64,000 bases of DNA from Actinoplanes italicus (lineage in GTDB: Bacteria; Actinomycetota; Actinomycetes; Mycobacteriales; Micromonosporaceae). Under the pieces are notes generated by a model. That model made no database searches, was not told the DNA's origin, and saw only the letters and a program-made list of their open reading frames with translations. Of this stretch, positions 18,540 to 64,000 are shown in pieces. Location: positions 186,001-250,000 of the forward strand of contig NZ_PVMZ01000003.1 of assembly GCF_003001815.1 (NCBI RefSeq). The letters are read 5' to 3'. Positions within the stretch are counted from its first letter, which is position 1; every line of letters begins with the position of its first letter. Position numbers and translations under genes: made by a program.

Positions 18540-18611
18540 GGGCGCGTAGCTCAGTGGGAGAGCACCCGCCTTACAAGCGGGGGGTCGTAGGTTCGAAACC
18601 TACCGCGCCCA
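18540..18611 (+). tRNA. tRNA-Val(TAC)
   Basis: It folds as a full cloverleaf of 72 nt. The acceptor arms are GGGCGCG and CGCGCCC with discriminator A, the D arm is GCTC/GAGC, and the anticodon stem CCCGC/GCGGG has loop CTTACAA, so the anticodon is TAC (valine GUA). The T arm is GTAGG-TTCGAAA-CCTAC. No CCA is encoded. It is the integration site of the downstream element. Confidence 0.97.
18587..18611 (+). other. attL core region (3' end of tRNA-Val)
   Basis: The T arm and acceptor 3' strand of tRNA-Val lie 100 bp upstream of the integrase start, the usual crossover location for tyrosine integrases. The exact core length needs the attR copy, which is not in the window. Confidence 0.65.
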
Positions 18612-18711
18612 CAGACCCCTCTCACCTGCGGAAACTCAACAAGTTGCCGTAGGAGAGTGAAAGCACGATGCACGGACACCACTCGCTTATGCAGTCCGCT
18701 GGTGATCTCCA

Positions 18712-19737
18712 ATGAGCCAGCATCCAAAGGTACTGAGGGCCGATCCAGGACCCCTGAGAGCCTGGATCGCGTCGTGGGAACTGAGCATGCGAGCCGAAGG
18801 CCTCAAGGGCCGAACCGTCGAGACGTACACCGACGTAGCCGTCCTCCTGGCCGGCTGGCTCATCCACGCGCACGAACCCGCAGTCGACGACTGGGCCGAC
18901 GTCCGCAAGAGCCACCTCAGGTTGTTCTTCGTCTGGCTCCAATCCGGCGGCCAGCCGTGCCCTCACCGGATCAACCCAGCCTCCCCGCCGATCGCCGGCT
19001 GCCAGGGCTACGGCCGGTCCTACGTCAACAACATCGGCAGAGCACTCCAGCAGTGGTGGAACTGGTACGCGCTCGAGGAGGAGGCACCTAACCCGATCGC
19101 CGGGATGAAGATCCCGTCGCCGCCGAAGCTCGACGACAACCCCCCGCCGGTGATCGAGGAGGACGAGCTCCGCACCCTGATCCGGAGCGCGGAGAGCAAG
19201 CGTGACTACACCAGCCGCCGCGACGCCGCCGTGCTGCGTCTGCTCGGGTCGACGGGCATCCGCCTGGGCGAGCTGGCCGGCATCGACCTGGCCGACCTCG
19301 ACCTGCAGAAGCGGGAGGTGCGGGTCACCGGCAAGGCCGACCGCACCCGTACCGTGAAGTTTGACGCCAAGACCGCGATCGCGTTGGACCGCTATTTGCG
19401 GATGCGGCAGCAGAGGCTCATCAAACTGGGCGGTCAGTTCGGCGAGAATGCTGTCAACGCTCTCTGGATCGGGCATCGGCGTTTCGTCCGGATGACAGAA
19501 GACGGTCTTTATCAGGCGATCGTGCGACGGGGAAAGGCCTGCAATCTCAAGATCTATCCGCATCTTTTCCGGCATACCTTCACGCACCGGTACCTCGACA
19601 ATGAGGGCAGCGAGGGCGACGTCATGGAGCTGAACGGCTGGGACTCTCCCCAGATGCTTCGGCGGTACGGCCGCAGCGCCCGGAGCGCCCGGGCGCGACG
19701 CGGATACGATCGCGTGAATGTTATGGGCGACATTTAG
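18712..19737 (+). CDS. int: Tyrosine-family site-specific integrase
   Basis: A 341-aa protein. The N-terminal SAM-like/core-binding domain runs to about residue 145 and the catalytic domain follows. Visible catalytic residues are Arg in STGIRLGELAG, Lys in VTGKADRTR, His-x-x-Arg in PHLFRHTF, the second His position replaced by Trp in ELNGWDS (common in XerC-like enzymes), and the nucleophile Tyr in MLRRYGR. It would recombine attP with tRNA-Val. It reads away from the tRNA into the element. Confidence 0.95.
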   Translation: MSQHPKVLRADPGPLRAWIASWELSMRAEGLKGRTVETYTDVAVLLAGWLIHAHEPAVDDWADVRKSHLRLFFVWLQSGGQPCPHRINPASPPIAGCQGYGRSYVNNIGRALQQWWNWYALEEEAPNPIAGMKIPSPPKLDDNPPPVIEEDELRTLIRSAESKRDYTSRRDAAVLRLLGSTGIRLGELAGIDLADLDLQKREVRVTGKADRTRTVKFDAKTAIALDRYLRMRQQRLIKLGGQFGENAVNALWIGHRRFVRMTEDGLYQAIVRRGKACNLKIYPHLFRHTFTHRYLDNEGSEGDVMELNGWDSPQMLRRYGRSARSARARRGYDRVNVMGDI

Positions 19738-19952
19738 CCGAATATTTCCGGGCCGTTAACGAGCACCGGTTGTGCGACGTCCCCCGATAGGGGTAGTCCG
19801 ACCGTTTTCAATCACCCGCCCACCGGTTCGGGTCTGCGGATCGCACGAATGATCGATTGGATCATTGAACCGTTTTAGGGTTCAACAATCCGCAGGTAAC
19901 GAGGGGTCGTAACCAGGGGAGACCAGGCCGCAATCGGGACGAGGGACGGGGT
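19738..19952 (+). promoter_or_regulatory. Intergenic control region with two adjacent palindromes
   Basis: No gene lies here. AATGATC-GATTG-GATCATT (19848-19866) is directly followed by TTGAACC-GTTTTAG-GGTTCAA (19865-19885). Both have perfect 7-bp arms. They lie 70-105 bp ahead of the next gene, in an AT-richer stretch that likely holds its promoter and operator. Confidence 0.55.
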
Positions 19953-20312
19953 ATGTCAGCACGACCGGAGGCTCAGCGCGCACCAGAGTTCGACACGCCC
20001 CGCCGAGACAAACGGGCCGCCAGGTGGATCCAGGCCGGGCTCTTCGCGGCCACCGGCGCGGCCGGCTCGCTCTGGCTCTGCCAGTTCGAGCCGCTGGAGG
20101 TCACCCACAGCCTGAGCTGGCTGTTCCTGGCCGTCGTGCTCGCCTCCTGGCCGGCCTACCTGGCGTGGAGGCACTCCACTGCCGCTGGCCGCCAGCAACA
20201 GACCCTGGCGGCGTTTCACGAGGGATACGCCACCGGCTACCTGCGTGGAGTCACTGACCGGCTCACCGGCGCCAGCGTCGGCGACGACGAAGGATCCGCC
20301 GACCAGCGCTGA
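19953..20312 (+). CDS. Small membrane protein of the ICE-like module
   Basis: A 119-aa protein with two predicted membrane helices (about residues 25-44 and 53-71), a basic N-terminal tail (TPRRDKRAARW) and a C-terminal cytoplasmic region (FHEGYATGYLRGVTDRL). Small two-helix proteins of this sort are common next to tra/spd genes in actinobacterial integrative elements. No specific family is recognised. Confidence 0.6.
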   Translation: MSARPEAQRAPEFDTPRRDKRAARWIQAGLFAATGAAGSLWLCQFEPLEVTHSLSWLFLAVVLASWPAYLAWRHSTAAGRQQQTLAAFHEGYATGYLRGVTDRLTGASVGDDEGSADQR

Positions 20313-20342
20313 CCGATTTCGATCCTCTGGCTTCACTCCAGG

Positions 20343-20381
20343 CTGCGCCCGGGTGCCGACCGATCACGGCCCCGGGCGCAG
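20343..20381. terminator. Bidirectional terminator between convergent genes
   Basis: CTGCGCCCGGG (20343-20353) pairs perfectly with CCCGGGCGCAG (20371-20381) around a 17-base loop. It lies between stop codons at 20312 (+) and 20388 (-). Confidence 0.75.
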
Positions 20382-20387
20382 TCGCGT

Positions 20388-20624
20388 CTACGCCTGTGGC
20401 ATCTCACCGCGGTGCTCGGCCCGGGCCTGCTCCAGCAGGCGAATGACGTCGGCCGGGTTGACCCGCCGCTGATGCCCGCCAGCGTGCAGCCGCCAGCCGA
20501 TCGTGCCGTCCTCAAGCCGCCGGTGCATGGTCGTGCGTCCGATACCGAGCAGCTGGGCCGCGTCGCCGGGTCGTAGCCACTCGCCCGCCCGGGCGCGTGC
20601 CTCCAGGTCCGGCTGGTCCGCCAT
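20388..20624 (-). CDS. MerR/BldC-like helix-turn-helix protein, excisionase candidate
   Basis: A 78-aa winged-HTH protein (WLRPGDAAQLLGIGRTTMHR, then GGHQRRVNPADVIRLL). This shape is shared by phage/ICE excisionases (Xis) and BldC-type regulators. Location near int favours Xis, although it is transcribed oppositely. I used the ATG at 20624 because the upstream extension is Arg/Asp-rich and unlike the family. Confidence 0.65.
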   Translation of the reverse strand: MADQPDLEARARAGEWLRPGDAAQLLGIGRTTMHRRLEDGTIGWRLHAGGHQRRVNPADVIRLLEQARAEHRGEMPQA

Positions 20625-20741: not shown

Positions 20742-21554
20742 ATGGGGCGCATGTCGACCGACACCAGCACGCGCATCCCGGAGGCCGCCCTGAAGCAGGC
20801 CCGTGACGCCGTCGGCACCGGCCCGATCCCGGCACGCACCGCCCTACGCAAGATCCTCGGGGTGGGCTGGCAGACGGCCACCGACATTCACGATCGTCTG
20901 ACGTCCGAACGAGAGCAACACCAGTCCGAGCGCAAGCGCGGCCTCCGCGCCGCCATGGCCCGTGTCCAGGCACGGGGGCCCCGCCCTCGGCACCTCCGGC
21001 TGCCATCCCGGCCCCGTCTCGCCCCCGCCCCCGAGCCGGCCACCATGCCGACGTTGGCCCCCACACCGGTGGAGCCCGAGACGGTCCAGAAGATCAAGGT
21101 CGCCGATCCGGTCCCGGCCGCCCCGACCCCGGTCCGGACGTGGCCGGTCCTCGGCCTGATCCTGCCCGCGTTCGTCGCGATCTGGTCCGGCTGGGTCGAC
21201 CTCGGACGGCTCACCGGCTTCGGCGTCGTCCGCCCGTTCCCCGGCATTCCCGGCGCCGACCGGATCCAGATCAACACCGCCATCACGTTGCCCGTGGGCC
21301 TGGAGACGTACGCGGCATTCGCGCTCTACGTGTGGCTGTCCGGACGAATCCACGGCCGGGCACTGACATTCGCTCGCTGGTCCGCCATCGGCAGCCTCGC
21401 CCTCGGCGCGGCCGGCCAGGTCGCCTACCACCTGATGGTCGCCGCCGGCTGGACCTCAGCCCCCTGGTGGATCACCACCATCGTCTCCTGCATCCCCGTC
21501 GCAGTCCTCGGCATGGGCGCAGCTCTCGCGCACCTCGTCCGCTCGCCAGCGTGA
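20742..21554 (+). CDS. Spd-like membrane protein (DUF2637-like) with N-terminal HTH
   Basis: A 270-aa protein. Residues 15-60 resemble a small DNA-binding helix bundle (ALRKILGVGWQTATDIHDRL). A Pro-rich linker follows (about 75-130), then four hydrophobic helices (about 135-265). The layout matches membrane proteins encoded next to tra genes in Streptomyces plasmids and ICEs that assist spread within mycelium. It overlaps the translocase gene by 4 bases (GTGA). An alternative start is ATG 20751. Confidence 0.65.
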   Translation: MGRMSTDTSTRIPEAALKQARDAVGTGPIPARTALRKILGVGWQTATDIHDRLTSEREQHQSERKRGLRAAMARVQARGPRPRHLRLPSRPRLAPAPEPATMPTLAPTPVEPETVQKIKVADPVPAAPTPVRTWPVLGLILPAFVAIWSGWVDLGRLTGFGVVRPFPGIPGADRIQINTAITLPVGLETYAAFALYVWLSGRIHGRALTFARWSAIGSLALGAAGQVAYHLMVAAGWTSAPWWITTIVSCIPVAVLGMGAALAHLVRSPA

Positions 21555-24116: not shown

Positions 24117-24141
24117 TGCCGTGGTGCTTACGGTGATCATC

Positions 24142-24360
24142 GTGGCGAAGGCGCGGAAGCTGTGGACGACAGGTGACATCGCCAAGCGACTCAGCGTCAC
24201 CCGCCAATACGCCCTGCAGATCACCAACGACCGCCGGCGCAACTTCCCGGAGCCCTTCGACACCCTGCCGGGCGGGGTCCAGGTGTGGCTCATCGAGGAC
24301 GTCGAGGACTGGATCGCTCGACACCCGCAACAGCCGATCGCCGAGGACCCCGAGAACTGA
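24142..24360 (+). CDS. AlpA/MerR-like HTH protein
   Basis: A 72-aa protein with WTTGDIAKRLSVTRQYALQI followed by the wing-like GVQVWLIEDVEDWIARHP, the pattern of excisionase-like or AlpA regulators. It is a second Xis candidate, in the same direction as int. GTG 24142 is chosen as most family-like; a start at 24121 adds seven residues. Confidence 0.6.
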   Translation: MAKARKLWTTGDIAKRLSVTRQYALQITNDRRRNFPEPFDTLPGGVQVWLIEDVEDWIARHPQQPIAEDPEN

Positions 24361-24547: not shown

Positions 24548-25714
24548 TCAGTCCTTGACCAGGTCGGACAGTCCAACAGCGACGGCAGCGTGACGCATCT
24601 GCTTGGTCAGCGCGTTCCGCTTGGTCCGCCTGACGATCGAACCGACCGAGTCCTTGATGGTCGGCCGCAGGCGGAACCACTGCGGGCCGGCGGCTTCACT
24701 CCGGAGCATCATCGCGATGGCCTCGTGGTCTCTGCCCGTCTGGACGTAGGCATTCCCAAGATCAGCGAAGTAGGGGGCCTGCCGGTTCGCCAGCGGGATC
24801 CGCCCCGGCGCGATCAGCTCCGAGGCCTCGATCGCCCGCCGAGGCTCACCCAACTCGAGCTCGACGGCCACCCGCCAGAAACCGGCGTTCGTCGGCCCGA
24901 ACGCAAACCGTGCAAGACCCAGGTCGACGGGTTCACCGAGCGACTGTGCAGCCTCCTCCGCCTCCCGCAGGTGGTCGTGCGCGACGTCCCCACGCCGGTC
25001 CACAGCAGCGCGTAGAGCGGCGTGGAGGTGGAGCATCCCGTACGCCTGCCGGACCTCCGGATCGCCGATGTGCGGCTGGATCTCGTCCGCGATGCGCTGG
25101 GCGAGGCGGGTCGGGGCACCGGGCATCTCCGGCGGCATCGCCAGGATGCGGATGAACTCGGCGATGCCGATCCAGGCCGGGTCGCCGACCTCGCGTGCCT
25201 CCTGGACGGCCAGCCGGGCAGCGTCCCGGGCGAGATCGGCGTAGCCGAGGTGCTTGAGGGTGTAGACGCCGACGTGCGCGACCTGGACCAGGTCCCCGCC
25301 GCGGAGCCCGCCGAGCATGTTCGGCAGCTGCGGGGCGACGGTCGCGAAGTCGTACGCCCCGCCCGCGATCATCAGCTCGCGGACGTCGTGGTGCGGCTCG
25401 ACGAGCTCGCCGACCTCGCGCCGGATCAGAGCCTCCCGGATGGCCGGCACGTGCGCGGCCGCGGCCGCCTTGGTGGCGTCGGTGGGGTCGCCCGGCTGTC
25501 TGGTGAGGTCGGCGATGGACACGTTCAGGGCCTGGGCGAGAGCAACGAGGGTGGAGCGGTTGTTCACGGGTTTGATGCCGCGCTCGATGAGGCTGAGGTA
25601 CGGCTGGCTCATGCCGGCGAGGCCTGCGGCGGCGCGCTGGTTGAGGCCGCGGCGTTTGCGCCAGTAGGCGACCTGGGCGCCGATGTTCTGTGGTTCGCCG
25701 ATGGTGGCGGGCAT
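24548..25714 (-). CDS. XRE regulator with C-terminal TPR-like domain
   Basis: A 388-aa protein. The N-terminal XRE HTH (VAYWRKRRGLNQRAAAGLAG, then MSQPYLSLIERGIKPVNNRS) is followed by about 300 residues of helical repeats (ARDAARLAVQEAREVGDPAW; LGNAYVQTGRDHEAIAMM). This is the architecture of RRNPP-type sensors and of many regulators in actinobacterial ICEs. It may control transfer or excision of the left module. Neither a cognate peptide gene nor a DNA target is visible. The 24361-24547 stretch after it holds nothing recognisable. Confidence 0.8.
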   Translation of the reverse strand: MPATIGEPQNIGAQVAYWRKRRGLNQRAAAGLAGMSQPYLSLIERGIKPVNNRSTLVALAQALNVSIADLTRQPGDPTDATKAAAAAHVPAIREALIRREVGELVEPHHDVRELMIAGGAYDFATVAPQLPNMLGGLRGGDLVQVAHVGVYTLKHLGYADLARDAARLAVQEAREVGDPAWIGIAEFIRILAMPPEMPGAPTRLAQRIADEIQPHIGDPEVRQAYGMLHLHAALRAAVDRRGDVAHDHLREAEEAAQSLGEPVDLGLARFAFGPTNAGFWRVAVELELGEPRRAIEASELIAPGRIPLANRQAPYFADLGNAYVQTGRDHEAIAMMLRSEAAGPQWFRLRPTIKDSVGSIVRRTKRNALTKQMRHAAVAVGLSDLVKD

Positions 25715-25823: not shown

Positions 25824-25827
25824 ACTC

Positions 25828-26086: not shown

Positions 26087-26165
26087 TTAGCCCAACGTTG
26101 GGCCTAGTGGTGTCATCCATTCGCGGGACAGTTAGGCCTAGCGTTGGGCCCAACGTTGGGCCTAA
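26087..26165. promoter_or_regulatory. Two-site palindromic operator between divergent genes
   Basis: CCCAACGTTGGG occurs perfectly at 26091-26102 and 26149-26160. Around the second, 26132-26165 forms a 34-bp near-palindrome (TTAGGCC ... GGCCTAA) centred on CGTTGGG-CCCAACG (26142-26155). The sites flank the control region of the genes at 26076 (-) and 26198 (+). Confidence 0.75.
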
Positions 26166-26730: not shown

Positions 26731-27402
26731 CTACCGGCCGAGGATCTTGTCCCAGGTGCGCGCGTCCACCACGCCGGTCACAGGGACTCCCACGATCCGC
26801 TGGTAGCGGCGCACCCGATCCTGGGTGGCCGGGCCGAACCGGCCGTCGTCCTTCGCCCCGACCCACCGCTGCAGGAACGCGACGTCCGGGCCGACCGCGC
26901 CGATGCGCAGGGTGCGGCTGCCCGGCTTCGGTCCGCCGGCCGGCTTACCGCTGCCCTGCAGTGCCTTGGCCGCGGCGATCGCCGCGGTGCGCGACACGTT
27001 GATCTCGAAGTGCATGTCGTCGGGGCGGGAGTAGTCACCGCCCCAGCGAATGATCTTGACGCCGTTGTGCGAGTACCGACCCAGAATGGCCCGGATCTTG
27101 GCCCGCTGCGACGGGGTAAAAGTGTTCCGCCGCCCCTGCGGGTGCACCAGCCAGTTCAGGTCCACCGCGGCACCGATCGCGTGCCGCGACCAGGACGACG
27201 TACCGGCGATCCGGCGCGGGTTGAAGCCCCCACACTGGCCCGGGATCAACTCCTCCACCTCACGGTCGAAATCCCTGGCAAGGCCGAGCAGCAGCGGCGC
27301 GACCTCACGCGCGAGGGTCAGCTTGATGCTGGTGCCGGGCACCAAGTACGTGGCCACCGCGGCGCCGGGCGCGGGGACGGTGAAGCCGAGCAGCGTCGCC
27401 AT
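26731..27402 (-). CDS. Endolysin: M15-type peptidase with peptidoglycan-binding domain
   Basis: A 223-aa protein. The N-terminal M15/VanY-like zinc peptidase has the SxHxxGxAxD-type SWSRHAIGAAVDLN and the later DMHFEI. The C-terminal peptidoglycan-binding domain (LRIGAVGPDVAFLQRWVG, then DGRFGPATQDRVRRYQR) attaches it to the wall. It would cleave peptide cross-links at the end of the lytic cycle. The ATG at 27402 has an AGGAGGAGG site. There is no signal peptide, so release depends on the holin upstream. Confidence 0.92.
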   Translation of the reverse strand: MATLLGFTVPAPGAAVATYLVPGTSIKLTLAREVAPLLLGLARDFDREVEELIPGQCGGFNPRRIAGTSSWSRHAIGAAVDLNWLVHPQGRRNTFTPSQRAKIRAILGRYSHNGVKIIRWGGDYSRPDDMHFEINVSRTAAIAAAKALQGSGKPAGGPKPGSRTLRIGAVGPDVAFLQRWVGAKDDGRFGPATQDRVRRYQRIVGVPVTGVVDARTWDKILGR

Positions 27403-28409: not shown

Positions 28410-31163
28410 CTATCGGGCCCAGCGCAACGGCTGGTCAAGCACGAGAGCGGCGCCAGCAGAGTGCGCCAGGGTGTAGCCGTCCAGGCCGCGCGTGAGCGTG
28501 AACGTCTGCGGGCTGGTGGCCCCGCTGACCGCCGTCACGGTGACGCGCTCTGCTTTCGCGCCGGACGGGTGCAGGACCCACATCACCATCGGCACCACCG
28601 AGGCCAGCGACCACGGCGTGCCCACCACGGCAACGCTCACGGCCTGGGACGTGCCGGGGGTGACCACCGCCAGGCCGGAGACGAGCGTGGTGCCGTCGGA
28701 GTCGGCCAGGTCCACACCCGCCACGCCGACCACCCACGGTCCGTGCGGCACCGTGTTGAACTGGATCTCCCGACGCCGGGGGCGGATCGTCTCGGCCCAG
28801 CCGTGGACCTGCAGGTCGATCGGCGACGGCGGCAGCCAATCCGGCGGATCGGTGATCACGATCCGGTCGCCCGGTCCGGCGGCCGCGATCGCCCGCGCCA
28901 CCTCCGGTTTCCCCGCGTCGACCAGCCGCGTCAGCGGGATCCGGACGACGGGGTACCGGTACTCGTCCCACGTGCCGAGGTGGACCTCCCACCAGGCGAC
29001 GTCGTGGAGTTGGTCGTCGGTCTCGAGGTCCAGGGTGTCGCTGCCGGGCCGCCGGCCGACGCCGACGGGGTGTTCCTGGATGCTGAGCCTGCCGGCCGTC
29101 GCCGTCGCCTGGTAGCTACTGCCCGCCCGACGTTCGGCGGTGTAATCGTTGACAACGTCCTCGGTCGGCTCGTCGGGTTCCAGGTGCGGGGACTCGCCCT
29201 CTTGCCCGTACTCCAGCGTTGCCCGCGGCACCTGGTTGTAGAGGCTGTACCTGGTCCGGTACTCGAGCATCATCGCGTCGCGGGCCTCGCCGAGCAGGCC
29301 GCGGTCGACGGCCGCGCACGAGGTGAACAGCTCAAGCGCCTTGCCGGGCTGCTGCGGGCCCATCCGCTCGGTGTTGTCCGGGTCGCCGATGATCCGGACC
29401 GGGATGCCGAGCTCCTCGCCGAGACGAAGCAGGCGCCGGCCGGCGGTTTCGCCGTCGTTGCCGACGATCGCCGTGTCGATGCCCGCGGCCAGGGTGGCGG
29501 AGGTGCCGAGCATGACGTGCCCGGCACCTCCGCCCTCCAGCTCGCCCTTCGGGGAAATCCGAACCTGCGAGGACCGGCCCACCGTCCGGGAGCTGAAGGT
29601 CCCGTCGAGCCCAAGCTCGGTCACCGTCAGGTCGGCGTTGATACGCCGGACGAAGACCTGCCAGTAGATGTCGCTGCCGGTCTGGGTGAGCTGCCAGCCG
29701 ATCATCTGACGGCGGCCGAGCACGTCGAAGTTGATGTAGAGGGTGTCGGCGATCTCCGTATCGGTGGAGTCCAGGCCACGCAGCCGCAGCTGGCCCGTGC
29801 TGCTGACCTCGAGAACCCACCGCGTGGCGGATCCGGCGACAGCCCGGACCTCGGCAAGGACGGCGTCGGCGAGCCAACCGGTGGCAGGGGCGTCGGCGAC
29901 CATCCGCATCGCGATCACGCCGGTGCCGGTGTGGGTGTTCGGCTTGCCGGTCAGCGTCGTGCCGTACGTGAACCCGAGTAGCGGGGCGCTGCCGGGGATG
30001 GCTTCGGACGAGCCGAGGTCCGGCTCTCCGGTGATGGTCATGGCGGTGCCGCCGGCGAGGGCGGAGGCGATGCTGGTGGCGTCGGAGCCGTCCTCGCAGG
30101 GCCAGTAGCCGACCATCAGCGGCAGGTTCGCCGCGGCGGTGGCCTCGCGGTAGAGCGGGGACCGGAGCGGCTCGGACGGCTGTTGCAGGCGGCGCAGCCA
30201 GCCGCCGATTTCCACCGGCGCGGTTTTGCGCCGGCCGGAGGTGACCCAGCGGACGGGCCAGTCGGCGACCTCGCCGCAGACGCGGACGTCGAAGTTGCGG
30301 AGCTCGGCACCGGTGAGCGTCCAGGTCTTGCCGGTGGAGTCCGCGAACGACGTCGCCCCGGGCGTCTGGGCCGTGAAGTCCGGGTTGGCCACCACCGAGC
30401 CAGCGATGCCGTTACGCAGCTGCATCGCGTGATAGCGGCCGGTCCCGTCCGCCGAGGCCAGGTCGTTGTAGCCCACCCGCAGCGGCGCAGTCCCGGAGTA
30501 CACGCTCGTGACCCCGACACCGGTGACGGGATCGCCGAGCTGCGTCCACGTGCCGCCGATCGTGTCGGAGGTGTAGAACACCACGGTCCAGCCGCCGCTG
30601 CCGTTGTTGACGTCCAAGGTCACGCGGATCGCGCACCGCCCGGACCCAGCCGGGACGATGTTCTCCGTCGCCTCGACCGTGATCGCCGACGCCAGCGTGC
30701 CGTCCGGCGACCAGCGGAAGGTAGGGGCGAGGTAGCGCATCCACAGCGCCCACGACCGCTGGTTCCCGGTGGTGTTGTACTTCCCGCACAGGCTGAGGAT
30801 GGAGTCGAGGTCCCAGGTCAGCGGCTCCACGTCGATCCGCACGTCCAGGTCCCCGGTGATATCCAGGGCCGCGGCGTCCGGGGTCGAGGCGATGTCACCG
30901 GAGACGCTGATCCACAGGTGAGTGTCGTCTCGCGCCCACGCGCGCATCGGCGTGGACCGGCCGAGGTAGCCGAAGTACGGCGACCTCGGGTTCCGGGAGC
31001 TGAGGTCGCCGTCGTCGTTGCGCAGCGTCAACGAGCACCGGGTCGGATCACCGACCACCGCGTTTTTCTGCCGGCCGCCGGTGATCCGGGCCGGGTCGGA
31101 GGTGAGGACGGAGACGTCAATCCAGTCCCCGTCGATCTGGATCTGGGCACCGAAGTCGGCCAC
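28410..31163 (-). CDS. Large minor tail protein (distal tail/fibre)
   Basis: A 917-aa protein. The N-terminal 120 residues resemble siphophage distal-tail/baseplate proteins (LTSDPARITGGRQKNAVVGD). One or two LamG/concanavalin-like regions follow (residues about 100-270 and 350-560), with later sections containing WWEVHLGTWDEYRYPVVRIP. It lies immediately downstream of the tape measure gene, so it most likely combines Dit/Tal-like roles. GTG 31163 has GGGGAGG upstream. Confidence 0.75.
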   Translation of the reverse strand: MADFGAQIQIDGDWIDVSVLTSDPARITGGRQKNAVVGDPTRCSLTLRNDDGDLSSRNPRSPYFGYLGRSTPMRAWARDDTHLWISVSGDIASTPDAAALDITGDLDVRIDVEPLTWDLDSILSLCGKYNTTGNQRSWALWMRYLAPTFRWSPDGTLASAITVEATENIVPAGSGRCAIRVTLDVNNGSGGWTVVFYTSDTIGGTWTQLGDPVTGVGVTSVYSGTAPLRVGYNDLASADGTGRYHAMQLRNGIAGSVVANPDFTAQTPGATSFADSTGKTWTLTGAELRNFDVRVCGEVADWPVRWVTSGRRKTAPVEIGGWLRRLQQPSEPLRSPLYREATAAANLPLMVGYWPCEDGSDATSIASALAGGTAMTITGEPDLGSSEAIPGSAPLLGFTYGTTLTGKPNTHTGTGVIAMRMVADAPATGWLADAVLAEVRAVAGSATRWVLEVSSTGQLRLRGLDSTDTEIADTLYINFDVLGRRQMIGWQLTQTGSDIYWQVFVRRINADLTVTELGLDGTFSSRTVGRSSQVRISPKGELEGGGAGHVMLGTSATLAAGIDTAIVGNDGETAGRRLLRLGEELGIPVRIIGDPDNTERMGPQQPGKALELFTSCAAVDRGLLGEARDAMMLEYRTRYSLYNQVPRATLEYGQEGESPHLEPDEPTEDVVNDYTAERRAGSSYQATATAGRLSIQEHPVGVGRRPGSDTLDLETDDQLHDVAWWEVHLGTWDEYRYPVVRIPLTRLVDAGKPEVARAIAAAGPGDRIVITDPPDWLPPSPIDLQVHGWAETIRPRRREIQFNTVPHGPWVVGVAGVDLADSDGTTLVSGLAVVTPGTSQAVSVAVVGTPWSLASVVPMVMWVLHPSGAKAERVTVTAVSGATSPQTFTLTRGLDGYTLAHSAGAALVLDQPLRWAR

Positions 31164-31177: not shown

Positions 31178-33637
31178 TTACTGGCCGAGGACGACCTGGA
31201 CGTCGCCGCCGCGCCACTTGATCGCGCCGCGCAGGATCTCGACGAGTAGGTCGTCGATGGCGGCGCCGGACGAGCGGAGTTCCAGCACGGTGCGGCCCAT
31301 TAGGTCCCGAAGCTTGCTGAGCGGGATGACGGCCTCGTCCTCGCCGCCCTCAGCGACGCCGACGAGCCGGCCGCCGGGGGTGGCCGGCACGATGCCGCCC
31401 TGGGCGAGGTACGGGATGTTGGGGGTGTCCATGCGGGCGCCGCCGATGACACCGAACGGCGTGCTGACGGAGGGCAGGCTGAAGGAGAGGTTGTTCCACC
31501 TCGCGATCACCCAGTTCACGGCCCCCTTGAAGCTCTCCTTGAGCCCGTTCCACATGCCCGACGCGGCGGAAGAGATCCGGCCAGGGAGCCCGCGCACCCA
31601 GGTGATCAAGGCGTTTCCACCAGCCTTGATCCGGTCATAGGTGGTCTTGGCCGTGTTGTACCAGCTGCCGACCTTTTCACCGGCCTTTTCGAACCACCTG
31701 ACCAAGGATTTGACCTGCTCGATGATGTCCTTGATCTTCTGCTGGTTCTCCGGCCGGTCCAGCCACGCGGAGATCCGCTCCAGGGTGACGTGCGCCCCGT
31801 CGAGCACCGAATCCGTGGCACCCTTGGCGTCCGGGAAAATGATGGCCAGGAATTTCCCGACGACCTCGACGATGTCCTCACCGACGACCCAGATCTTCTC
31901 CATCGTCTCGGCGCTGTCCTCGAAGAACTTCTTCAGCGCGCCGGACTCGTCCGCCTTGCGGATCCATTCCGAGAACTTCTCGACGGTGTTGGCCAGCCGT
32001 ACACCGAAACGCTCCATGAAGGGCCCCGCCTTCGCGGAGAGCCGCCCCCAGGCGTCCATGAACGGGCCCGTGATGGCCTCACCGATCCGGCCGATCATGC
32101 GCTCAAAGGACGCCATCCCGGCATCCATGTTCTTGATGAACGACTTCTTAGAGACCGATTCGCCGAGGTTGTGAAACAGCCCGTTCACCATGCCGGCCAT
32201 GGAGGTCAGCCGCGACTTGAGCGTGCCCTTCCACTTCTCAGCGACCGAGGTAATCCGGTCACCCACGCCCTTGAACAGCCGCTCCTGAACGGCCAGACGA
32301 AGATCCTCAAAGGCGGGCTTGAGCCGCTTGATCGCGTCAACGGCGGCCTGAGCAGCCGGCGCGAGCTTTGTGATCTCCTGACCCGCGCCACCGCCCCCGC
32401 CACCACCGACGGGCTTGCGTGCCTGCTGCAGCGCATGCTCGGCATCCGCGACACCCTCGACCGCGGCACGTTCCCGCTTACGGGCAGCCGCCACCTCGTC
32501 GACAGCGGCCCGGTGCCGCTCCTGCGCGGCCTTGACCTCGTCGCTGCCCTTGATACCTTTCTTGGCCGCCTCAGCGTGCTCCTCGCCCAGGTCCTCGACG
32601 CGGTCCTTGGACTCCTCGGCCGCGTGCTGAGCCTCCCGGAGCGCGAGCTCGGCGCGCTGGATGGCGAGCGGCTCCCACGGACGGCGCAGCGCTTCCTGGT
32701 AGGCGACCTCAGCTTCCGTCACGCGGAGCGCAGCTGACTCCTGGGAGAGCTTCGCCCCGGCCAGATCCCGGCTGAGATCTTGAAGGTTCTCGGCCGCACG
32801 CCGTTCCGCGCGGGCCAAGTCTTCCTGTGCCTCCTTGGCACGGACACGGGCGCGAGTCAGGTTCTCTTGGCTGGCCGTGACCTCTTCGTTCGCGTCCCGG
32901 ACCCGGCGCTCGGCCTGGGCGATCTGGTAAGCCCGGTCGACCATCGCCGCACCGGATCCGCCCCCACCGCCGACCTTCTTGAAGGCGTCGTCGAGCCCCA
33001 TGAACCCGAGCCCGAGGACGCCGGTGAGGGCACCGAGGCCGCCGATCAGGCCGGGCAGCGAACCGAGCGCACCACCGAGGACACCGATCGCGGAAGCCGA
33101 GCTGGCCGCCGCCGCACCGAGAGCAGCGAACCACGCCAGCGTCTGGATGATCGGCCCGCCGGACTGTGCGATCACACCCATCAACGACGACATCGCGCCG
33201 CTGACGACGCCGAACCCGCCCCGGATCCCACCGCCGATGCCTTCGGCAGCCGCACCACCCAGGTTGCGGCCTTCGCTGACGAACTTGCCCCGGCCGTCAC
33301 GTAGCCGGCCGTTCGCGTCCCGGGTGAAGCCCTCGCCGCCCTCCCGGCCGGCACGGCCCATGGCGATCGCCGCTTCGATCGCAGCCTGCTCGGCAGCGGT
33401 GACGAACCGGCCCTTCGTGTCCCGGAGCCGCCCGCCGGCGTCGCGGGTGAACGCGTCCGCACCCCGGGCACCAGCAGAGCCCCAGTTACGGGCGATCCCG
33501 GCCGCCGTGGTCGCGGCGTCGGCCTGCATCGCCTGCCCAGCCGCACGAACCTTGCGCCTGCCGTCGCCCAACCCTTTCTCCAAGGGCCGGTCGTCGGTCT
33601 TCAGGATGGCGACAAGCTCGCCCAGCTTCAGCGCCAT
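31178..33637 (-). CDS. Tape measure protein
   Basis: An 819-aa protein. The start is ALKLGELVAILKTDDRPLEKG. Two copies of a 20-residue FTRDA-GRLRD-GRFV module lie near residues 63 and 100. Then come a hydrophobic Gly/Ala stretch (about 150-220), a long coiled coil (about 245-400) and a C-terminal region with WSRFNNL-like Trp-rich motifs. Length sets tail length, predicting a long-tailed siphovirus of roughly 120 nm (about 0.15 nm per residue, general rule). Confidence 0.9.
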   Translation of the reverse strand: MALKLGELVAILKTDDRPLEKGLGDGRRKVRAAGQAMQADAATTAAGIARNWGSAGARGADAFTRDAGGRLRDTKGRFVTAAEQAAIEAAIAMGRAGREGGEGFTRDANGRLRDGRGKFVSEGRNLGGAAAEGIGGGIRGGFGVVSGAMSSLMGVIAQSGGPIIQTLAWFAALGAAAASSASAIGVLGGALGSLPGLIGGLGALTGVLGLGFMGLDDAFKKVGGGGGSGAAMVDRAYQIAQAERRVRDANEEVTASQENLTRARVRAKEAQEDLARAERRAAENLQDLSRDLAGAKLSQESAALRVTEAEVAYQEALRRPWEPLAIQRAELALREAQHAAEESKDRVEDLGEEHAEAAKKGIKGSDEVKAAQERHRAAVDEVAAARKRERAAVEGVADAEHALQQARKPVGGGGGGGAGQEITKLAPAAQAAVDAIKRLKPAFEDLRLAVQERLFKGVGDRITSVAEKWKGTLKSRLTSMAGMVNGLFHNLGESVSKKSFIKNMDAGMASFERMIGRIGEAITGPFMDAWGRLSAKAGPFMERFGVRLANTVEKFSEWIRKADESGALKKFFEDSAETMEKIWVVGEDIVEVVGKFLAIIFPDAKGATDSVLDGAHVTLERISAWLDRPENQQKIKDIIEQVKSLVRWFEKAGEKVGSWYNTAKTTYDRIKAGGNALITWVRGLPGRISSAASGMWNGLKESFKGAVNWVIARWNNLSFSLPSVSTPFGVIGGARMDTPNIPYLAQGGIVPATPGGRLVGVAEGGEDEAVIPLSKLRDLMGRTVLELRSSGAAIDDLLVEILRGAIKWRGGDVQVVLGQ

Positions 33638-57159: not shown

Positions 57160-57167
57160 AGGGCGGG

Positions 57168-57967: not shown

Positions 57968-58191
57968 CGGTCGCCTACCCGGCGCTGGTGCTCGGCCTGG
58001 GCGGCGTCTCGCTCGGCCTCGGCCGCGGCGATCGCGGCTTCGTCGTGCACCGAGTTCGACTCCGACAGCGGGCAGCTTGCGCAGACTCCCGGCACCTCGC
58101 TCGGCTGCCACGGGTGCAGGTCGATCCCGCGGTGCGGCTGCCGGGGCGCCCGGACCGGCCGGCGGCGGCCGGTCCGGGTACCCCTGCTCAT
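57964..58191 (-). CDS. Small WhiB-like or Cys-pair phage protein
   Basis: A 75-aa protein. The N-terminus is basic (MSRGTRTGRRRPVRAPRQPH). The middle is HPWQPSEVPGVCASCPLSES and the C-terminal helix is acidic (DEAAIAAAEAERDAAQAEHQ). Only one Cys pair is present, so a WhiB cluster is unlikely. ATG 58191 overlaps the helicase stop. Confidence 0.58.
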   Translation of the reverse strand: MSRGTRTGRRRPVRAPRQPHRGIDLHPWQPSEVPGVCASCPLSESNSVHDEAAIAAAEAERDAAQAEHQRRVGDR

Positions 58192-60020
58192 GCGACCGCT
58201 CCGGCCAGCTGCGGTGTGGTGCAGCCGCACGCCGAGCACCGGACTCCCCGGCCGGCGGGGCGGTGGGCGATCGTCGTGTGCTGGCAGTCCGGGCAGGACC
58301 GACGCGGCGCCGGCACCGGTGTCTCCAGGGCGATCCCTGCCGCTGCCCGGCCGATCCGGAGCGCCTCAGCCGGGTCCAACAGCGACTCGCCGGCGTAGAA
58401 GCAGCGGGGCAGGTGGAAGCCGTTGTCGCAGCCGATCGGCTGGCACGGTCCTGGGACCCCGTCCTCGTCGTCCTGGGTGTTGGGGTCGTACGGGTTGGGT
58501 AGGTCGTCGAGGATCGCGTCGGGGTGTTCCCGTACCGCGGTGGCCAGCCACGACGACGGCCCCGGGACACCGCGGTCGAAGTCGTCGAGCCAGGCCAGGC
58601 CGCCCCGGTCCAGGACCTTCCGGGCCCGGGTCACCGCGACGTACGCCAGCATCAGCTCGTCCTTGCGCCACAACGGACGCCCGGTCAGAGGGTCGACGCG
58701 GGGCTCCCGGAAGTCCGGGGCGATCCGAACCTGATCCCATTCGCGGCCCTTGGCCTTGTGCGCGGTCGAGATGATGACGTCGGCCTGCTTCTCGTCGACC
58801 AGCGACGACACGATGGCCAGGATGCGCTCCGGCGTGTGCTCGTTGATCAGCTTCACCAGCACCTTCAGCGAGCCGGAAGCGTCGTCGAGGGCGGCGTGCT
58901 CTTCCACCTGGTCCCAGGTGGAGAAGGCGATCAGCTCGGGGTGGGCCGTGCCCTTGCCGGACATGAGGTCCATGGCGGCCTCGGCCAGCCGTACGAGCTC
59001 GGTGCCGCCACCGACCAGGGCGGCGCGGCGGCCGGCGGATACGGCGGCGACCAGCTGGCCGATCGCTCCGGCGTTGGACCGGCACAGGACAGCATCCGGG
59101 CGGTCCAGCATGCCGATCGTCGAGCCAGCGGGTTCGAAGCCGCGGAGCCGCAGCGGGGCGCGGAGCAGGTCCAGCCAGCGGTTGGCCTCACCGGCGATGG
59201 CCGGCCCGAACCGGAACGACTGAGAGAGGGTGAGGCGCTGGTCGGCGACGAACTTGCGCATCGCGTCGATCGCCCCGCGGAAGCCGTAGATGGCCTGGGC
59301 GGAGTCGCCGACCATGATGCGCTGGGCGTGGTCCTGGAAGTGGAACAGGCTGGCCATGACGGGGCTCAGGTCCTGGGCCTCGTCGAGGAGTACGAAGTCG
59401 ACCGGGATCCGCGGCCGCGACAGCTGGTAGATCTTCAGGTAGGTGTCGTGCGTGAACTGCAGCCGCCCGCCCCGGACCAGCTGCAGGTCGTCCCAGGCCT
59501 TGCGTGCGAACGGCACCAGGTACTTCGCGAGCTCGGCGTTGTCGGTGTCGCTGTACCCGTCCACCGGCACCAGGTGCTGGACGCCGGGCTCGTTGTCGGC
59601 GGAGTTGAGGAACATGCCGACCATCGCCATCACCAGGCGGGCCAGCTTCACCGGCGACAGCGGGGCGAGCGCGTCGGCGATCTGCACCGGGTTGTTGAAG
59701 CCGAGGACCTCGGCGGCGGTCTTCGCGGGGACGCGGGGTCCGGACAGGCGGGCCGAGAAGTGACGGCCGACCGGCCCGAACGCCAGCGAGTGCGCGGTCC
59801 GGCAGTCGACGGAGGCGGGGAAGTCGCGCTTCGCTTCGGTGGCCAGGGCCCTGTTGTACGCGACGTACAGGCCGCGGCGTCGGGGCTGGGCGTTCGCAGC
59901 CATCTTGAGCGTGCTGCTCTTGCCGCAGCCAGCGCCGGCCTGCACGACGATCGTGGGCCGGGCCTCGCTGGTGAAGGCGTCGATGACGGCGGCCTGCTCG
60001 GCGGTGGGTGTGTGGCTCAT
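58188..60020 (-). CDS. UvrD/PcrA-like superfamily 1 helicase
   Basis: A 610-aa protein. Motif I is QAGAGCGKSSTLKM (about 27-40), motif II LLDEAQDLSP (about 210), motif III GDSAQAIYGFRGA, motif V STAHKAKGREWDQV and motif VI YVAVTRARKVLD. A C-terminal zinc ribbon follows (CPDCQHTT, CSACGCTTPQ). It unwinds DNA in phage replication or recombination. It overlaps the ATPase gene by ATGA. Confidence 0.92.
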   Translation of the reverse strand: MSHTPTAEQAAVIDAFTSEARPTIVVQAGAGCGKSSTLKMAANAQPRRRGLYVAYNRALATEAKRDFPASVDCRTAHSLAFGPVGRHFSARLSGPRVPAKTAAEVLGFNNPVQIADALAPLSPVKLARLVMAMVGMFLNSADNEPGVQHLVPVDGYSDTDNAELAKYLVPFARKAWDDLQLVRGGRLQFTHDTYLKIYQLSRPRIPVDFVLLDEAQDLSPVMASLFHFQDHAQRIMVGDSAQAIYGFRGAIDAMRKFVADQRLTLSQSFRFGPAIAGEANRWLDLLRAPLRLRGFEPAGSTIGMLDRPDAVLCRSNAGAIGQLVAAVSAGRRAALVGGGTELVRLAEAAMDLMSGKGTAHPELIAFSTWDQVEEHAALDDASGSLKVLVKLINEHTPERILAIVSSLVDEKQADVIISTAHKAKGREWDQVRIAPDFREPRVDPLTGRPLWRKDELMLAYVAVTRARKVLDRGGLAWLDDFDRGVPGPSSWLATAVREHPDAILDDLPNPYDPNTQDDEDGVPGPCQPIGCDNGFHLPRCFYAGESLLDPAEALRIGRAAAGIALETPVPAPRRSCPDCQHTTIAHRPAGRGVRCSACGCTTPQLAGAVA

Positions 60021-60943
60021 GCCGGGGCTCCAGCGGGCTCCTGCTCAGCAGCACGCGCGGAACGGGCCTTCGCCTCCAGGCCACGGCCCCGGATGAAGTC
60101 GCCGAGCGCAGCGCTGTCCCCGGTGTCCGTGATGATCGCGGCCATCAGCAGGCCGTGCCGCTCGGCTTTGCGGTACACGTCGATCAGCTCGTCGTACGTG
60201 GCGTGAGGCGCCGCCAGGACCTCGTCGCGGATCTCCTCGGCGGTCGGTCCGGCCTCGCCGTCCTGCAGCCAGTCTCCGAGGGTCTGCCCGAAGGAGGCGT
60301 CCGGGCGGTTGATCACCGCACCGGAAAGCGTCTTGCAGCGGCTCTTCGTGACGACCAGGGTGTTGTCCAGGTCCATCGTGCCGACCAGGGTGAACTCGTA
60401 CTCCAGGCCCTCACGCTGCTCGGCCTTCAGGCCGATCTTCTTCGGCACCTTCTTGCCGCGGTCGTTCTCTTCGACGACCCATTCGGTCTTGGTGCGGAGC
60501 GTTGCGATCAGGTGGCCCGGATAGGCCAGCATCGCCTCGATCATGCGACGCTCGGTGGGCCGCATCTCCTTCCAGCCGCCGAACGTGTTCCCGCCGGCGG
60601 AGCGCTTCGCGGCCCGGTCGACCTGTTCGAGCATGCCGTCGGTGCCCATCCAGAAGTGCGACAGGCTGTCGATGACGATCACGTCGTAGCCCGCCTTGGC
60701 GGCGGCGGCGAGCGCGCCGGTGAGCAGCTGGGGGTCGTAGCTGTCGAGTTCCAGGGTGTCGAAGTCGAACTCGTCGGCGTACAGGCTGGCCGAACGGTGC
60801 TCAGTGTCGATCAGTGCGATGCGCTGGCCGAGGGCGCGGGCGGTGGTCAGGGCGGTGTAGGTCTTGCCGCTGCCTGACGGGCCCTCCAGCGCGATGCGGG
60901 CCTTAGCCGCCTTCTTGGTGGCCTTGGTGAAGGTGAAGCTCAT
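60017..60943 (-). CDS. RecA-like AAA ATPase (Sak4-type)
   Basis: A 308-aa protein. P-loop ALEGPSGSGKTYTALT (about 18-33), Walker B YDVIVIDSLSHFW (about 86) and a downstream NTFGGWKEMRPTERRM. It matches AAA_24/Sak4 single-strand annealing ATPases of phages, which work with an SSB and helicase. No SSB is obvious in the window. Confidence 0.88.
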   Translation of the reverse strand: MSFTFTKATKKAAKARIALEGPSGSGKTYTALTTARALGQRIALIDTEHRSASLYADEFDFDTLELDSYDPQLLTGALAAAAKAGYDVIVIDSLSHFWMGTDGMLEQVDRAAKRSAGGNTFGGWKEMRPTERRMIEAMLAYPGHLIATLRTKTEWVVEENDRGKKVPKKIGLKAEQREGLEYEFTLVGTMDLDNTLVVTKSRCKTLSGAVINRPDASFGQTLGDWLQDGEAGPTAEEIRDEVLAAPHATYDELIDVYRKAERHGLLMAAIITDTGDSAALGDFIRGRGLEAKARSARAAEQEPAGAPA

Positions 60944-61134
60944 CGGGGGTGTCCCTTCGCGTCGAACTTGGTGTTGGCGGCGGCGCGCATGGCGGCCAGC
61001 AGCGGGTGGACGGCGTCGCGCTCAGCACGGGCGGCGTCGGCGGCCGGCCCGGTCGCGAGGACGATCGGCGGCTTCTCGCGGAGGACCTCGGCCCACTCCG
61101 CAGCTGACTGCGCAGCGGTGATCGGCTCGCTCAC
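60940..61134 (-). CDS. Small hypothetical phage protein
   Basis: A 64-aa helical protein (ITAAQSAAEWAEVLREKPPI, ADAARAERDAVHPLLAAMRA). It overlaps both neighbours by ATGA, between the sigma factor and the ATPase. Family unknown. Confidence 0.6.
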   Translation of the reverse strand: MSEPITAAQSAAEWAEVLREKPPIVLATGPAADAARAERDAVHPLLAAMRAAANTKFDAKGHPR

Positions 61135-61721
61135 GACGACCGCCTCATGTACCGGGCCAGCGACTGGGTGGCCCGCCAGGTGAGGGTCTTGAGCGCCGCA
61201 TCGGTCATGCCCATCTCGGCGCTGGCGTCGGCGATCGACAGCTCACGGAAGAACCGCAGGATGATCACGTTGCGCTGCGGCTCCGTCAGGAGCTCCAGTG
61301 CGACCAGCAACCGGGCACGCAACTCGGCGTGCGCCATCGCGGCCAGCACCGGCTCATCCGCAGCCGGAGCCCGGCTGTCCCGCAGCCGGTCCGCGCTGTC
61401 CTCCGGGACGATGTCGAACAGAGAGGACGAGCGGTTGGACTTCTTCTTGAAGTGGTCGGAGATCAAGTTTCGGGCGATGGTGACGAGCCAGGCCCCGATC
61501 GCCTTGTCGCGGCACTCGAAGTTCGTAGTGAGCCGGGCGAACGCCCTGGTGAACGTGTCGTGTGTGAGGTCTTGGGCCAGATACTTGTCCGGCAACCGCC
61601 GGTACACGAAGCGGTAGACCGTGTCGTAGTGGCTGCGATAGATCTCGGCGAACGCGTCGGGGTCTCCGGCCTGGTGGCGGCGCACCAGGTCCAGGCCCTC
61701 GTCGACCGTGGGCGCGGTCAT
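61131..61721 (-). CDS. ECF-type RNA polymerase sigma factor
   Basis: A 196-aa protein. Region 2 (DPDAFAEIYRSHYDTVYRFV; DLTHDTFTRAFARL) and region 4 (LELLTEPQRNVIILRFFREL; SIADASAEMGMTDAALKTL) are both complete. No anti-sigma is adjacent. It lies in the early phage operon, so it could direct transcription of middle genes. ATG 61721 overlaps the upstream stop (ATGA). Confidence 0.9.
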   Translation of the reverse strand: MTAPTVDEGLDLVRRHQAGDPDAFAEIYRSHYDTVYRFVYRRLPDKYLAQDLTHDTFTRAFARLTTNFECRDKAIGAWLVTIARNLISDHFKKKSNRSSSLFDIVPEDSADRLRDSRAPAADEPVLAAMAHAELRARLLVALELLTEPQRNVIILRFFRELSIADASAEMGMTDAALKTLTWRATQSLARYMRRSS

Positions 61722-63167: not shown

Positions 63168-63236
63168 TGTGGTACTCCTTGGGTGTCTGGGCGGTCCCGT
63201 GCGCTGGCGAGCTGGCGGGGCCGCCTGGTGTTTGTG

Positions 63237-63512
63237 CTAGGAGGCCTTGCGGGCCGCGCGGGCCTGGGCCGAGCGCAGCGACATCAGCGCGAAGTGCGCC
63301 TTCTTGAGCCGCTCGACGCCCGCCGCAAGCTCCTCCGGCGACAGGACGCCGTCCGGGTCGACCTGCTGCTCCCACTTCCGGCGCTGACCTTTCGAGGCCT
63401 TCTCCGTCGCCTGGCGTCGCTCAGCCGGGGAATTCACACGCGCCCACCGCGTGTTGGCTGCGCGCGCAGCGATCAGAGATCTGTGCGTAGCGGGGAGGCT
63501 AGCGGTTGACAC
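63237..63512 (-). CDS. Conserved small basic actinophage protein
   Basis: A 91-aa protein with the recurrent actinophage pattern SPAERRQATEKASKGQRRKW, EQQVDPDGVLSPEELAAGVE, AHFALMSLRSAQARAARK. The family is very common in early operons of actinophages; function unknown, likely nucleic-acid-associated by charge. It overlaps the repressor gene by 14 bp. Confidence 0.7.
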   Translation of the reverse strand: MSTASLPATHRSLIAARAANTRWARVNSPAERRQATEKASKGQRRKWEQQVDPDGVLSPEELAAGVERLKKAHFALMSLRSAQARAARKAS

Positions 63513-63759
63513 CGGCGGCCTCCGGGGTGCGCATCAGGTCAGCGGAGGTGGTGTTGAGGGCCTTGGCGATGCGGCTGAGCAGTACGGGCGAGGGCTTCCG
63601 GCGTCCGCGCTCGATGTCGCAGATGTGCTGGAGGCTCGCGGGCTTGGCCTTTCTCGCCAACGTTGCGGCGGTGAAGCCCTGCTCCACGCGGAGTTTGCGG
63701 ATGAGCTGGCCGTCTACGTCGCCCGTTACCTGGCGGTGCGGCGGTGCCGTGTCGGTCAT
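63499..63759 (-). CDS. XRE-family Cro-like repressor
   Basis: An 86-aa protein. HTH RKLRVEQGFTAATLARKAKP, SLQHICDIERGRRKPSPVL. First gene of the leftward early operon, facing a second HTH gene across repeated TGCGCA sites. It could serve as Cro or as the first regulator of the lytic genes. ATG 63759 is preferred over 63765. Confidence 0.8.
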   Translation of the reverse strand: MTDTAPPHRQVTGDVDGQLIRKLRVEQGFTAATLARKAKPASLQHICDIERGRRKPSPVLLSRIAKALNTTSADLMRTPEAAGVNR

Positions 63760-63769
63760 GTGCACAGCA

Positions 63770-63888
63770 TTGCGCAGTCGTGCGCAGTGCGCAAGTGGCT
63801 GCGCACCAAAGAGTGCGCAGCATTATGCGCAACACTGCGAGGATCGACGCAATTCACTCATGTTTGATGTTGCGTAGTCGTGCGCAGT
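63770..63888. promoter_or_regulatory. Lysogeny-switch operator region with repeated TGCGCA
   Basis: TGCGCA occurs at 63771, 63781, 63788, 63800, 63814, 63826 and 63881, plus TGCGTA at 63871. A 19-bp direct repeat TTGCG-AGTCGTGCGCAGT lies at 63770 and 63870, exactly 100 bp apart. The region lies between divergent HTH genes. Confidence 0.8.
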
Positions 63889-63906
63889 AGGCCTTAGGGT
63901 GAGCTC

Positions 63907-64000
63907 ATGACTGACGCGCTCGCGCCCACCGAGCTCGGCCGTCTCCTGGAAGCAGCACGCGAGAAGGCCGGCATCTCCGGCCGCCAAGCCGCGGCGCGAT
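63907..64000 (+). CDS. HTH regulator, truncated by the window end
   Basis: Frame TDALAPTELGRLLEAAREKA, GISGRQAAAR runs off the window. It looks like the first helices of an XRE repressor. It is divergent from the Cro-like gene and so is the candidate prophage repressor (CI-like). Only 31 codons are visible. Confidence 0.6.
   Translation, partial: MTDALAPTELGRLLEAAREKAGISGRQAAAR

What the first reader, a model, noticed from the sequence alone, without database searches (positions are those of the whole stretch)
18587..64000. Complete siphophage joined to an ICE-like transfer module in one tRNA-Val integration
The sequence shows one integrase at a tRNA, then a Spd-like protein and FtsK/TraB-type translocase, with no second tRNA end between them and the phage genes. 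Mycelial phage-plasmids with tra-type genes are known in Streptomyces (such as pZL12), but a chromosomal element with full head, tail and lysis genes plus a translocase could spread both by virions and by hyphal transfer. Whether the two modules act as one element is inference.
Basis: partly seen in the sequence, partly recalled or inferred. Interest (0 to 1): 0.8.

Follow-up and report, generated by a model that had tools for sequence, protein, structure and literature searches.

The report
Prophage with built-in DNA transfer motor
A complete-looking bacterial virus dormant in a soil bacterium carries, as a lasting part of its own genome, a DNA-pumping motor of the kind that plasmids use to move between filaments, so it may have a second way to spread besides making virus particles; that use is inferred, not shown.

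Summary
The 3' end of tRNA-Val(TAC) recurs at window-equivalent 64449-64491, just past the window, and at 81352-81395. Element 1 (18569-64491) is one siphoprophage with one integrase found; it includes the slot membrane gene and the FtsK-class translocase.

The join is no local accident. Two same-genus prophages at tRNA-Ser hold the module and a phage within one att pair. Of 26 family-wide copies, 7 lie beside phage genes, 14 in small integrative elements, 5 are undetermined. In a tree 11 phage-borne copies group (86/89, moderate), and at least 3 changes between phage and other carriers are forced. A second prophage of the same genome carries a homologue of plasmid TraB in the same slot.

The parts
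18540..18612 (+). tRNA-Val (TAC), attachment gene
   Evidence: ARAGORN
18569..18612 (+). attL (44 nt of the tRNA 3' end); further copies lie outside the window at window-equivalent 64449-64491 (right att of the phage, left att of element 2) and 81352-81395 (right att of element 2)
   Evidence: BLAST in own genome; single copy in window
18712..19737 (+). tyrosine integrase, the only integrase found in element 1
   Evidence: PF00589 E 4.8e-22; phrog_1; profile scan
19953..20312 (+). 119-aa protein of unknown function
   Evidence: gene call only; no family
20388..20624 (-). small HTH_17 protein, with homologues just left of the slot in G014, G033, G058
   Evidence: PF12728 E 2.1e-8; 49-58% homologues
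20742..21554 (+). slot protein g20: two predicted membrane segments in the C-terminal half; Spd-like by position only
   Evidence: 2557 homologues at E<=1e-5 among the candidates scored; hydropathy; weak GntR hit (E 1.2e-4, below cut-off) in its homologue L030
21551..23284 (+). FtsK/TcpA-class DNA translocase g21 (577 aa)
24133..24360 (+). small DNA-binding / excisionase-like protein
   Evidence: phrog_597 E 4.4e-9, phrog_66 E 4.5e-5
24548..25714 (-). HTH_31 regulator
   Evidence: PF13560 E 8.3e-11; phrog_5823 E 6.7e-50
26731..27402 (-). endolysin (M15 peptidase + PG_binding)
28410..31163 (-). phage protein of phrog_5313 (unknown function)
   Evidence: E 8.6e-196
31178..33637 (-). tail tape measure protein
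34370..35122 (-). major tail protein
41337..42371 (-). major head protein
   Evidence: phrog_212 E 1e-70; 66-67% to SV1 and REQ3
44266..46059 (-). head morphogenesis protein with ADP-ribosyltransferase-like C-terminal part
46063..47673 (-). portal protein
49065..50348 (-). terminase large subunit
58188..60020 (-). DNA helicase
   Evidence: phrog_1967 E 1.7e-83
60017..60943 (-). Sak4-like protein
   Evidence: phrog_1366 E 1.6e-94 (unknown), phrog_124 E 4.8e-11
61131..61721 (-). RNA polymerase sigma factor
63907..64000 (+). start of an HTH_31 regulator gene that ends at 64350, beyond the window
   Evidence: L005:407-850

Best explanation
Element 1 is a complete-looking temperate siphophage (about 45.9 kb, window 18569-64491) integrated at tRNA-Val. 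A conjugation-type cassette, a membrane slot protein plus an FtsK/TcpA-class translocase, is a resident part of its lysogeny arm. In the excised circle the order reads regulator - attP - integrase - slot protein - translocase on one strand, opposite to the lytic genes (inferred from the integrated map). Most likely the translocase pumps double-stranded excised phage DNA across hyphal contacts or cross-walls, as TraB does for Streptomyces plasmids, while the Spd-like partner anchors or guides the DNA at the membrane. Virions would serve for distance, the pump for local mycelial spread. Shown: one att pair, one integrase found, predicted fold of the motor, the same layout in other prophages, a TraB homologue in a sister prophage. 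Inferred: excision, virions, DNA transfer, and a cis transfer site.
Against: No clt-like array of 8-nt repeats was recognised near the module (exact repeats only). g20 matches no known Spd or DUF2637 family. g21 shows no significant similarity to the TraB candidate of the AICE-like element next door and matches Pfam DUF87, not PF01580; its NCBIfam hits to conjugation proteins are far below the cut-offs. No strong transmembrane segment is seen in g21 by hydropathy, though the model has long N-terminal helices. The spread is narrow: 22 of 354 family genomes, own included, and 2 of 394 genomes drawn from the class, own included. Isolated phages almost lack it: one weak match in 50,697 records. 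In the Dactylosporangium vinaceum genome that holds a copy, no relative of the window's head protein was found.
Confidence: 0.55

Rival explanations
1. The translocase works inside the lysogen: it moves or sorts excised or replicating phage DNA within the multigenomic hypha or into spores, as FtsK/SpoIIIE do for chromosomes, with no transfer between strains.
Against: Best match is the conjugation protein TcpA. Close homologues lie in small integrative elements, more distant ones on plasmids. The sister prophage uses a homologue of plasmid TraB.
Confidence: 0.22
2. The cassette is a defence, exclusion or regulatory module built on a HerA/FtsK-like ATPase, not a DNA export system.
Against: HerA rows rank well below TcpA and FtsK. 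No nuclease or SIR2 partner was recognised among the neighbours scanned (g18, g19, g20, g22, g25); g23 and g24 were not scanned and no PADLOC scan was run. Gene order matches that of plasmid pRL2.
Confidence: 0.1
3. The phage is helped by, or helps, the neighbouring AICE-like element: recombination between the outer att sites would excise a 62.8-kb composite that travels with either motor.
For: Three copies of the att core in tandem; element 2 has its own integrase, excisionase-like gene, replication gene and a TraB candidate by position and length. Tandem AICEs are reported at one tRNA (PMC3218068, passages).
Against: The phage module recurs in prophages whose flanks show no match to element-2 genes in the stretches read. 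Composite excision is untested.
Confidence: 0.1
4. 18.6-26.5 kb is an ICE remnant and the phage a separate element whose shared att was lost: a chance fusion in this genome.
For: The module resembles those of small integrative elements; an integrase 49% identical to g17 lies with the translocase in L115, where no tail gene was recognised.
Against: The same order occurs in three other prophages with other integrases and in IMG/VR viral contigs; no second integrase or att was found.
Confidence: 0.03

Closest known systems
Streptomyces plasmid-phage pZL12 (Zhong et al. 2010; seen only as a citation and one passage in PMC7157519; paper not held)
   Same: A phage genome for which plasmid transfer has been studied, by the paper's title
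   Different: Extrachromosomal (passage of PMC7157519), whereas this one is integrated at a tRNA; gene relatedness not compared here
AICEs (pSAM2-type; PMC3218068, passages)
   Same: tRNA integration by tyrosine integrase, FtsK-class translocase, partner membrane gene
   Different: Carries a full siphophage; PF01580 not matched; no RepSA/RepAM/Prim-Pol gene recognised among the genes scanned
Streptomyces linear plasmid pRL2
   Same: DUF2637 gene followed by the translocase homologue pRL2-11
   Different: Plasmid; no phage gene named in the stretch shown; 36% identity over 63% of the query
TraB of pSN22, and the matching gene of pJV1 (annotated hypothetical there, after traA; its name TraB is recalled)
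   Same: The sister prophage's slot gene is 31.5-32.2% identical to these over 68% of the query
   Different: The window's own translocase is of another sequence family
Siphophages SV1, REQ3, ToastyFinz; Micromonospora phage pMLP1
   Same: Head protein 66-68% identical to SV1, REQ3 and ToastyFinz, 45% to pMLP1; terminase 51% to pMLP1
   Different: The translocase search of this collection found only phage Dagobah, 34.6% over 47% of the query
Streptococcus pyogenes conjugative prophage Phi1207.3 (PMC4260502, abstract and outline)
   Same: A prophage reported to move by conjugal transfer
   Different: Different host and genes; no FtsK-type motor is named in its abstract

Membership tests
Temperate siphophage | Head, packaging, tail and lysis genes with open frames in one block | tested here: met
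Temperate siphophage | Integrase and attachment sites bounding the phage | tested here: met
Temperate siphophage | Infectious virions after induction | not testable with these tools
   Needs mitomycin C induction and plaques or particles
AICE | tRNA integration with tyrosine integrase | tested here: met
AICE | Tra protein with FtsK/SpoIIIE domain PF01580 | tested here: not met
   g21 matches DUF87 and, below cut-off, AAA_10 and TrwB_AAD_bind, although its fold is FtsK/TcpA-like
AICE | Rep protein of RepSA, RepAM or Prim-Pol type | tested here: inconclusive
   Not recognised among 32 of 73 called genes scanned
FtsK-class DNA translocase | Motor fold | tested here: met
TraB (pSN22, pJV1, pSVH1 type) | Sequence homology of the window's translocase to TraB | tested here: inconclusive
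   No name with TraB is shown among its 120 listed homologues of 455 found (names cut); no significant match to the neighbour's candidate. The sister prophage's gene is homologous
TraB | C-terminal winged helix | tested here: inconclusive
   Helix-helix-strand-strand-helix at 523-574 in the model; structure search spans mainly 223-504
TraB | clt site with 8-bp TRS repeats | tested here: inconclusive
   No array recognised by exact 8-mer search
TraB | Transfer of dsDNA between hyphae | not testable with these tools
   Needs mating assay

The most novel reading that the evidence does not exclude
A set of Micromonosporaceae temperate siphophages has a standard transfer slot in the lysogeny arm, filled by interchangeable plasmid-type DNA pumps (pRL2-11/TcpA-like in one prophage, TraB-like in another of the same genome), so that these phages are dual-mode elements that spread by virions and by hyphal conjugation and trade the pump with AICE-like elements.
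Probability: 0.45. Interest if true: 0.82.

Novelty: new variant of a known kind. Interest (0 to 1): 0.63.

Why it matters
If the pump works, a tailed phage has a built-in second route of spread suited to mycelial hosts, and the line between prophage and conjugative element is blurred as a recurrent design, not as a one-off. It also gives a direct test: the same genome holds two prophages with different pumps in the same slot, so transfer, immunity and maintenance roles can be separated by single gene deletions. In the searches no listed title or abstract start describes it in these phages; only the best-ranked papers are listed and most subscription journals are not held. Relatives of the sister gene already sit unnamed in a phage family library (phrog_24831, E 1.9e-55), and both prophages are in IMG/VR as unnamed viral contigs.

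Tried and rejected
Rejected: a chance fusion or tandem elements split at 26-27 kb, because no att or integrase was found there and two relatives hold both modules within one att pair.

Not supported: homology of the window's slot protein with the DUF2637 type (hhalign probability 0.4%) and of the phage translocase with the neighbour's TraB candidate by BLASTP.

Led nowhere: exact 8-mer search for clt. Three TGTCATGACA-like palindromes precede the slot operon in L028, L030 and L032, none by exact match in the window stretch, L034 or L036; they look like an operator rather than clt. No att pair was found for G058 or for the second prophage. pMLP1 papers: none held. pZL12 paper: not held.

Limits: genes were called by my own codon-usage script. 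I scanned 32 of the 73 genes called in element 1 against family libraries. Absence of phage genes in the 14 small elements rests on BLAST against reference prophages, scans of a few cluster representatives and the short distance from translocase to recombinase, not on a scan of every gene; recombinases other than L121, L113 and L115 are assigned by BLAST clustering. L109 is placed with phages by a phage family without a named function. L109 and L124 also hold a serine recombinase 11-13 kb on, so they may be remnants. In the tree, L031 was labelled phage on IMG/VR's word only; its one tested protein showed no tail match. The integrases of G014, G033 and G058 are named from BLAST matches to the neighbour's integrase. 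The search for the integrase in relatives did not complete. The label AICE for element 2 rests on gene content; its 723-aa TraB candidate matched no Pfam family and only weakly EccCa in NCBIfam.
Full report
Where it lies. The window is contig C3:186001-250000 of an 11.15-Mb genome.

Boundaries. The 3' 43-44 bases of tRNA-Val(TAC), 18569-18612, recur at C3:250449-250491 and C3:267352-267395, that is window-equivalent 64449-64491 and 81352-81395. Inside the window the 23-base core occurs once with up to 3 mismatches. Element 1 therefore runs about 45.9 kb and element 2 about 16.9 kb. Empty site: in 9 of 29 same-genus loci examined, DNA matching our flank at 81.5-85.1 kb lies within 1.5 kb downstream of the same tRNA (in one of the nine, L055, the match is inverted). 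In the other 20 no such match was seen, through divergence, other inserts or, in one, an unmapped tRNA end. These 29 are the loci handed out besides our own; 55 of 60 genomes, own included, had a match.

Element 1. One tyrosine integrase was found, with a small HTH protein, the membrane slot protein g20, the translocase g21, an excisionase-like protein, regulators, endolysin, tail, head, terminase and early genes including helicase, Sak4-like protein and sigma factor. I scanned 32 of its 73 called genes against family libraries. The major head protein is 66-68% identical to SV1, REQ3 and ToastyFinz. g21 also matches phrog_1358, an FtsK/SpoIIIE-like phage family, weakly (E 1.8e-5).

Element 2, outside the window. 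An integrase, HTH_17 excisionase-like gene, DnaB-N/DUF3987 replication gene, DUF2637 gene, a 723-aa TraB candidate, a NUDIX gene and cargo (DUF4145; a NACHT ATPase) lie between the second and third att; a GntR-like gene and a second NUDIX gene are named by eye. Tandem AICEs with different integrases at one tRNA are reported in PMC3218068 (passages seen), so this tandem is unusual mainly in pairing a phage with an AICE-like element.

Is the module part of the phage? A search of 150 genomes, own included, found the translocase in three besides its own. All three copies lie in prophages with the same order: HTH, slot protein, translocase, tail, head, portal, terminase, early genes, integrase (by BLAST to the window's genes; lysis genes were not identified there). 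G014 and G033 are bounded by 25-nt tRNA-Ser(TGA) repeats (24 of 25 and 25 of 25 identical) that enclose 44.2 and 42.9 kb; for G058 no att pair was found. Their integrase sits on the other side of attP, so the circular order is kept while the integrase differs. Twelve IMG/VR loci carry relatives; two of them are this prophage and G058. One large protein from each of the other ten was tested: 8 of 10 match named tail tape-measure families, L032 matches only an unlabelled family shared with some of these, and L031 shows no tail match.

Family-wide. 22 of 354 family genomes, own included, hold 26 copies. By context: 7 of 26 lie beside phage genes. Of these, window, G014, G033 and G058 read as whole prophages; L123 shows tail to head genes where the stretch ends; L124 has a tape measure; L109 (Dactylosporangium vinaceum) has a phrog_5313 protein, the family of window 28410-31163, function unlabelled. 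L109 and L124 may be remnants, and no relative of the window's head protein was found in the L109 genome. 14 of 26 lie in small integrative elements with a serine recombinase (8) or tyrosine integrase (6) and no tail gene recognised. 5 of 26 are undetermined (L110, L116, L119, L125, L130). One of the 14, L111, has a single HK97-type head protein. In 394 genomes drawn from the class, only one besides the own had a match at E<=1e-60, a partial one.

Tree. In a tree of 38 translocases, the 17 rows labelled phage need 4 changes (3 forced by well-supported branches; shuffled mean 12.8, 0 of 500 as low), and 11 phage rows including the window group together at 86/89, a moderate, unstarred support. 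So the cassette seems to have stayed in phages over a long divergence and to have crossed between phages and other elements several times. The window row itself has a long branch and lies in no starred set; its nearest row by identity, L110, is undetermined. Labels of L031, L109 and L124 are unsure.

Partner protein. In Streptomyces, conjugation requires a single plasmid protein, TraB, which recognises 8-bp repeats at clt; spread proteins are highly diverse, and SpdB2 is a DNA-binding membrane protein that contacts TraB (PMC4170104, passages). The slot proteins here fit that pattern: at least two sequence types by profile comparison, a third by lack of a BLAST match, membrane-spanning by hydropathy in the six tested, several with weak HTH hits, DUF2637 in 5 of 10. 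pRL2 has DUF2637 followed by the translocase homologue.

Mechanism. Best reading: after excision the circular phage DNA is pumped between hyphae by the translocase with its membrane partner. Steps shown: element structure, conservation, predicted fold, homology of the sister gene to TraB. Steps inferred: excision, hexamer formation, a cis site, transfer. The main gap is the missing clt; FtsK-like internal DNA handling is the chief rival.

Literature. Their listings show AICEs, phage-plasmids and a conjugative streptococcal prophage, and none by title or abstract start with this design in actinomycete siphophages. I read passages of PMC3218068, PMC7157519 and PMC4170104 and the abstract and outline of PMC4260502.

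Noticed in passing
window-equivalent 64449-81395 (L005): A tandem AICE-like element with its own integrase, DUF3987 replication gene, DUF2637 gene, a NUDIX gene (a second by eye), low-GC ends, a DUF4145 gene and an 875-aa NACHT-type ATPase as cargo.
   Followed up: partly
G000 C3 about 367.7-413.6 kb (L074-L077): A second complete-looking prophage whose slot translocase is homologous to plasmid TraB of pSN22.
   Followed up: yes
L111 (G670 contig C370): A small integrative element with the same translocase, a primase/AAA-like gene by BLAST to L113 and a lone HK97-type major head protein, with no tail genes recognised; perhaps a capsid-bearing satellite.
   Followed up: partly
L028, L030, L032 upstream of the slot operon: Three TGTCATGACA-like palindromes at spacings of about 34 and 25 bases, a likely operator.
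   Followed up: partly
26090-26165: Three close copies of CGTTGGGC between divergent small genes, probably an operator.
   Followed up: no
44266-46059: Head morphogenesis protein with an ADP-ribosyltransferase-like C-terminal part (phrog_3895).
   Followed up: no
IMGVR_UViG_2728369518_000002: IMG/VR lists this locus as one 57-kb virus starting at window 18787; its length implies that it runs into the neighbouring AICE-like element.
   Followed up: yes
L115 7716-8648: An integrase 49% identical to the phage's own lies beside tRNA-Thr in an element with the same translocase but no tail genes recognised.
   Followed up: partly
7027-7124: ARAGORN calls a 98-base tRNA-Val (GAC), an odd length that may be a false call.
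   Followed up: no
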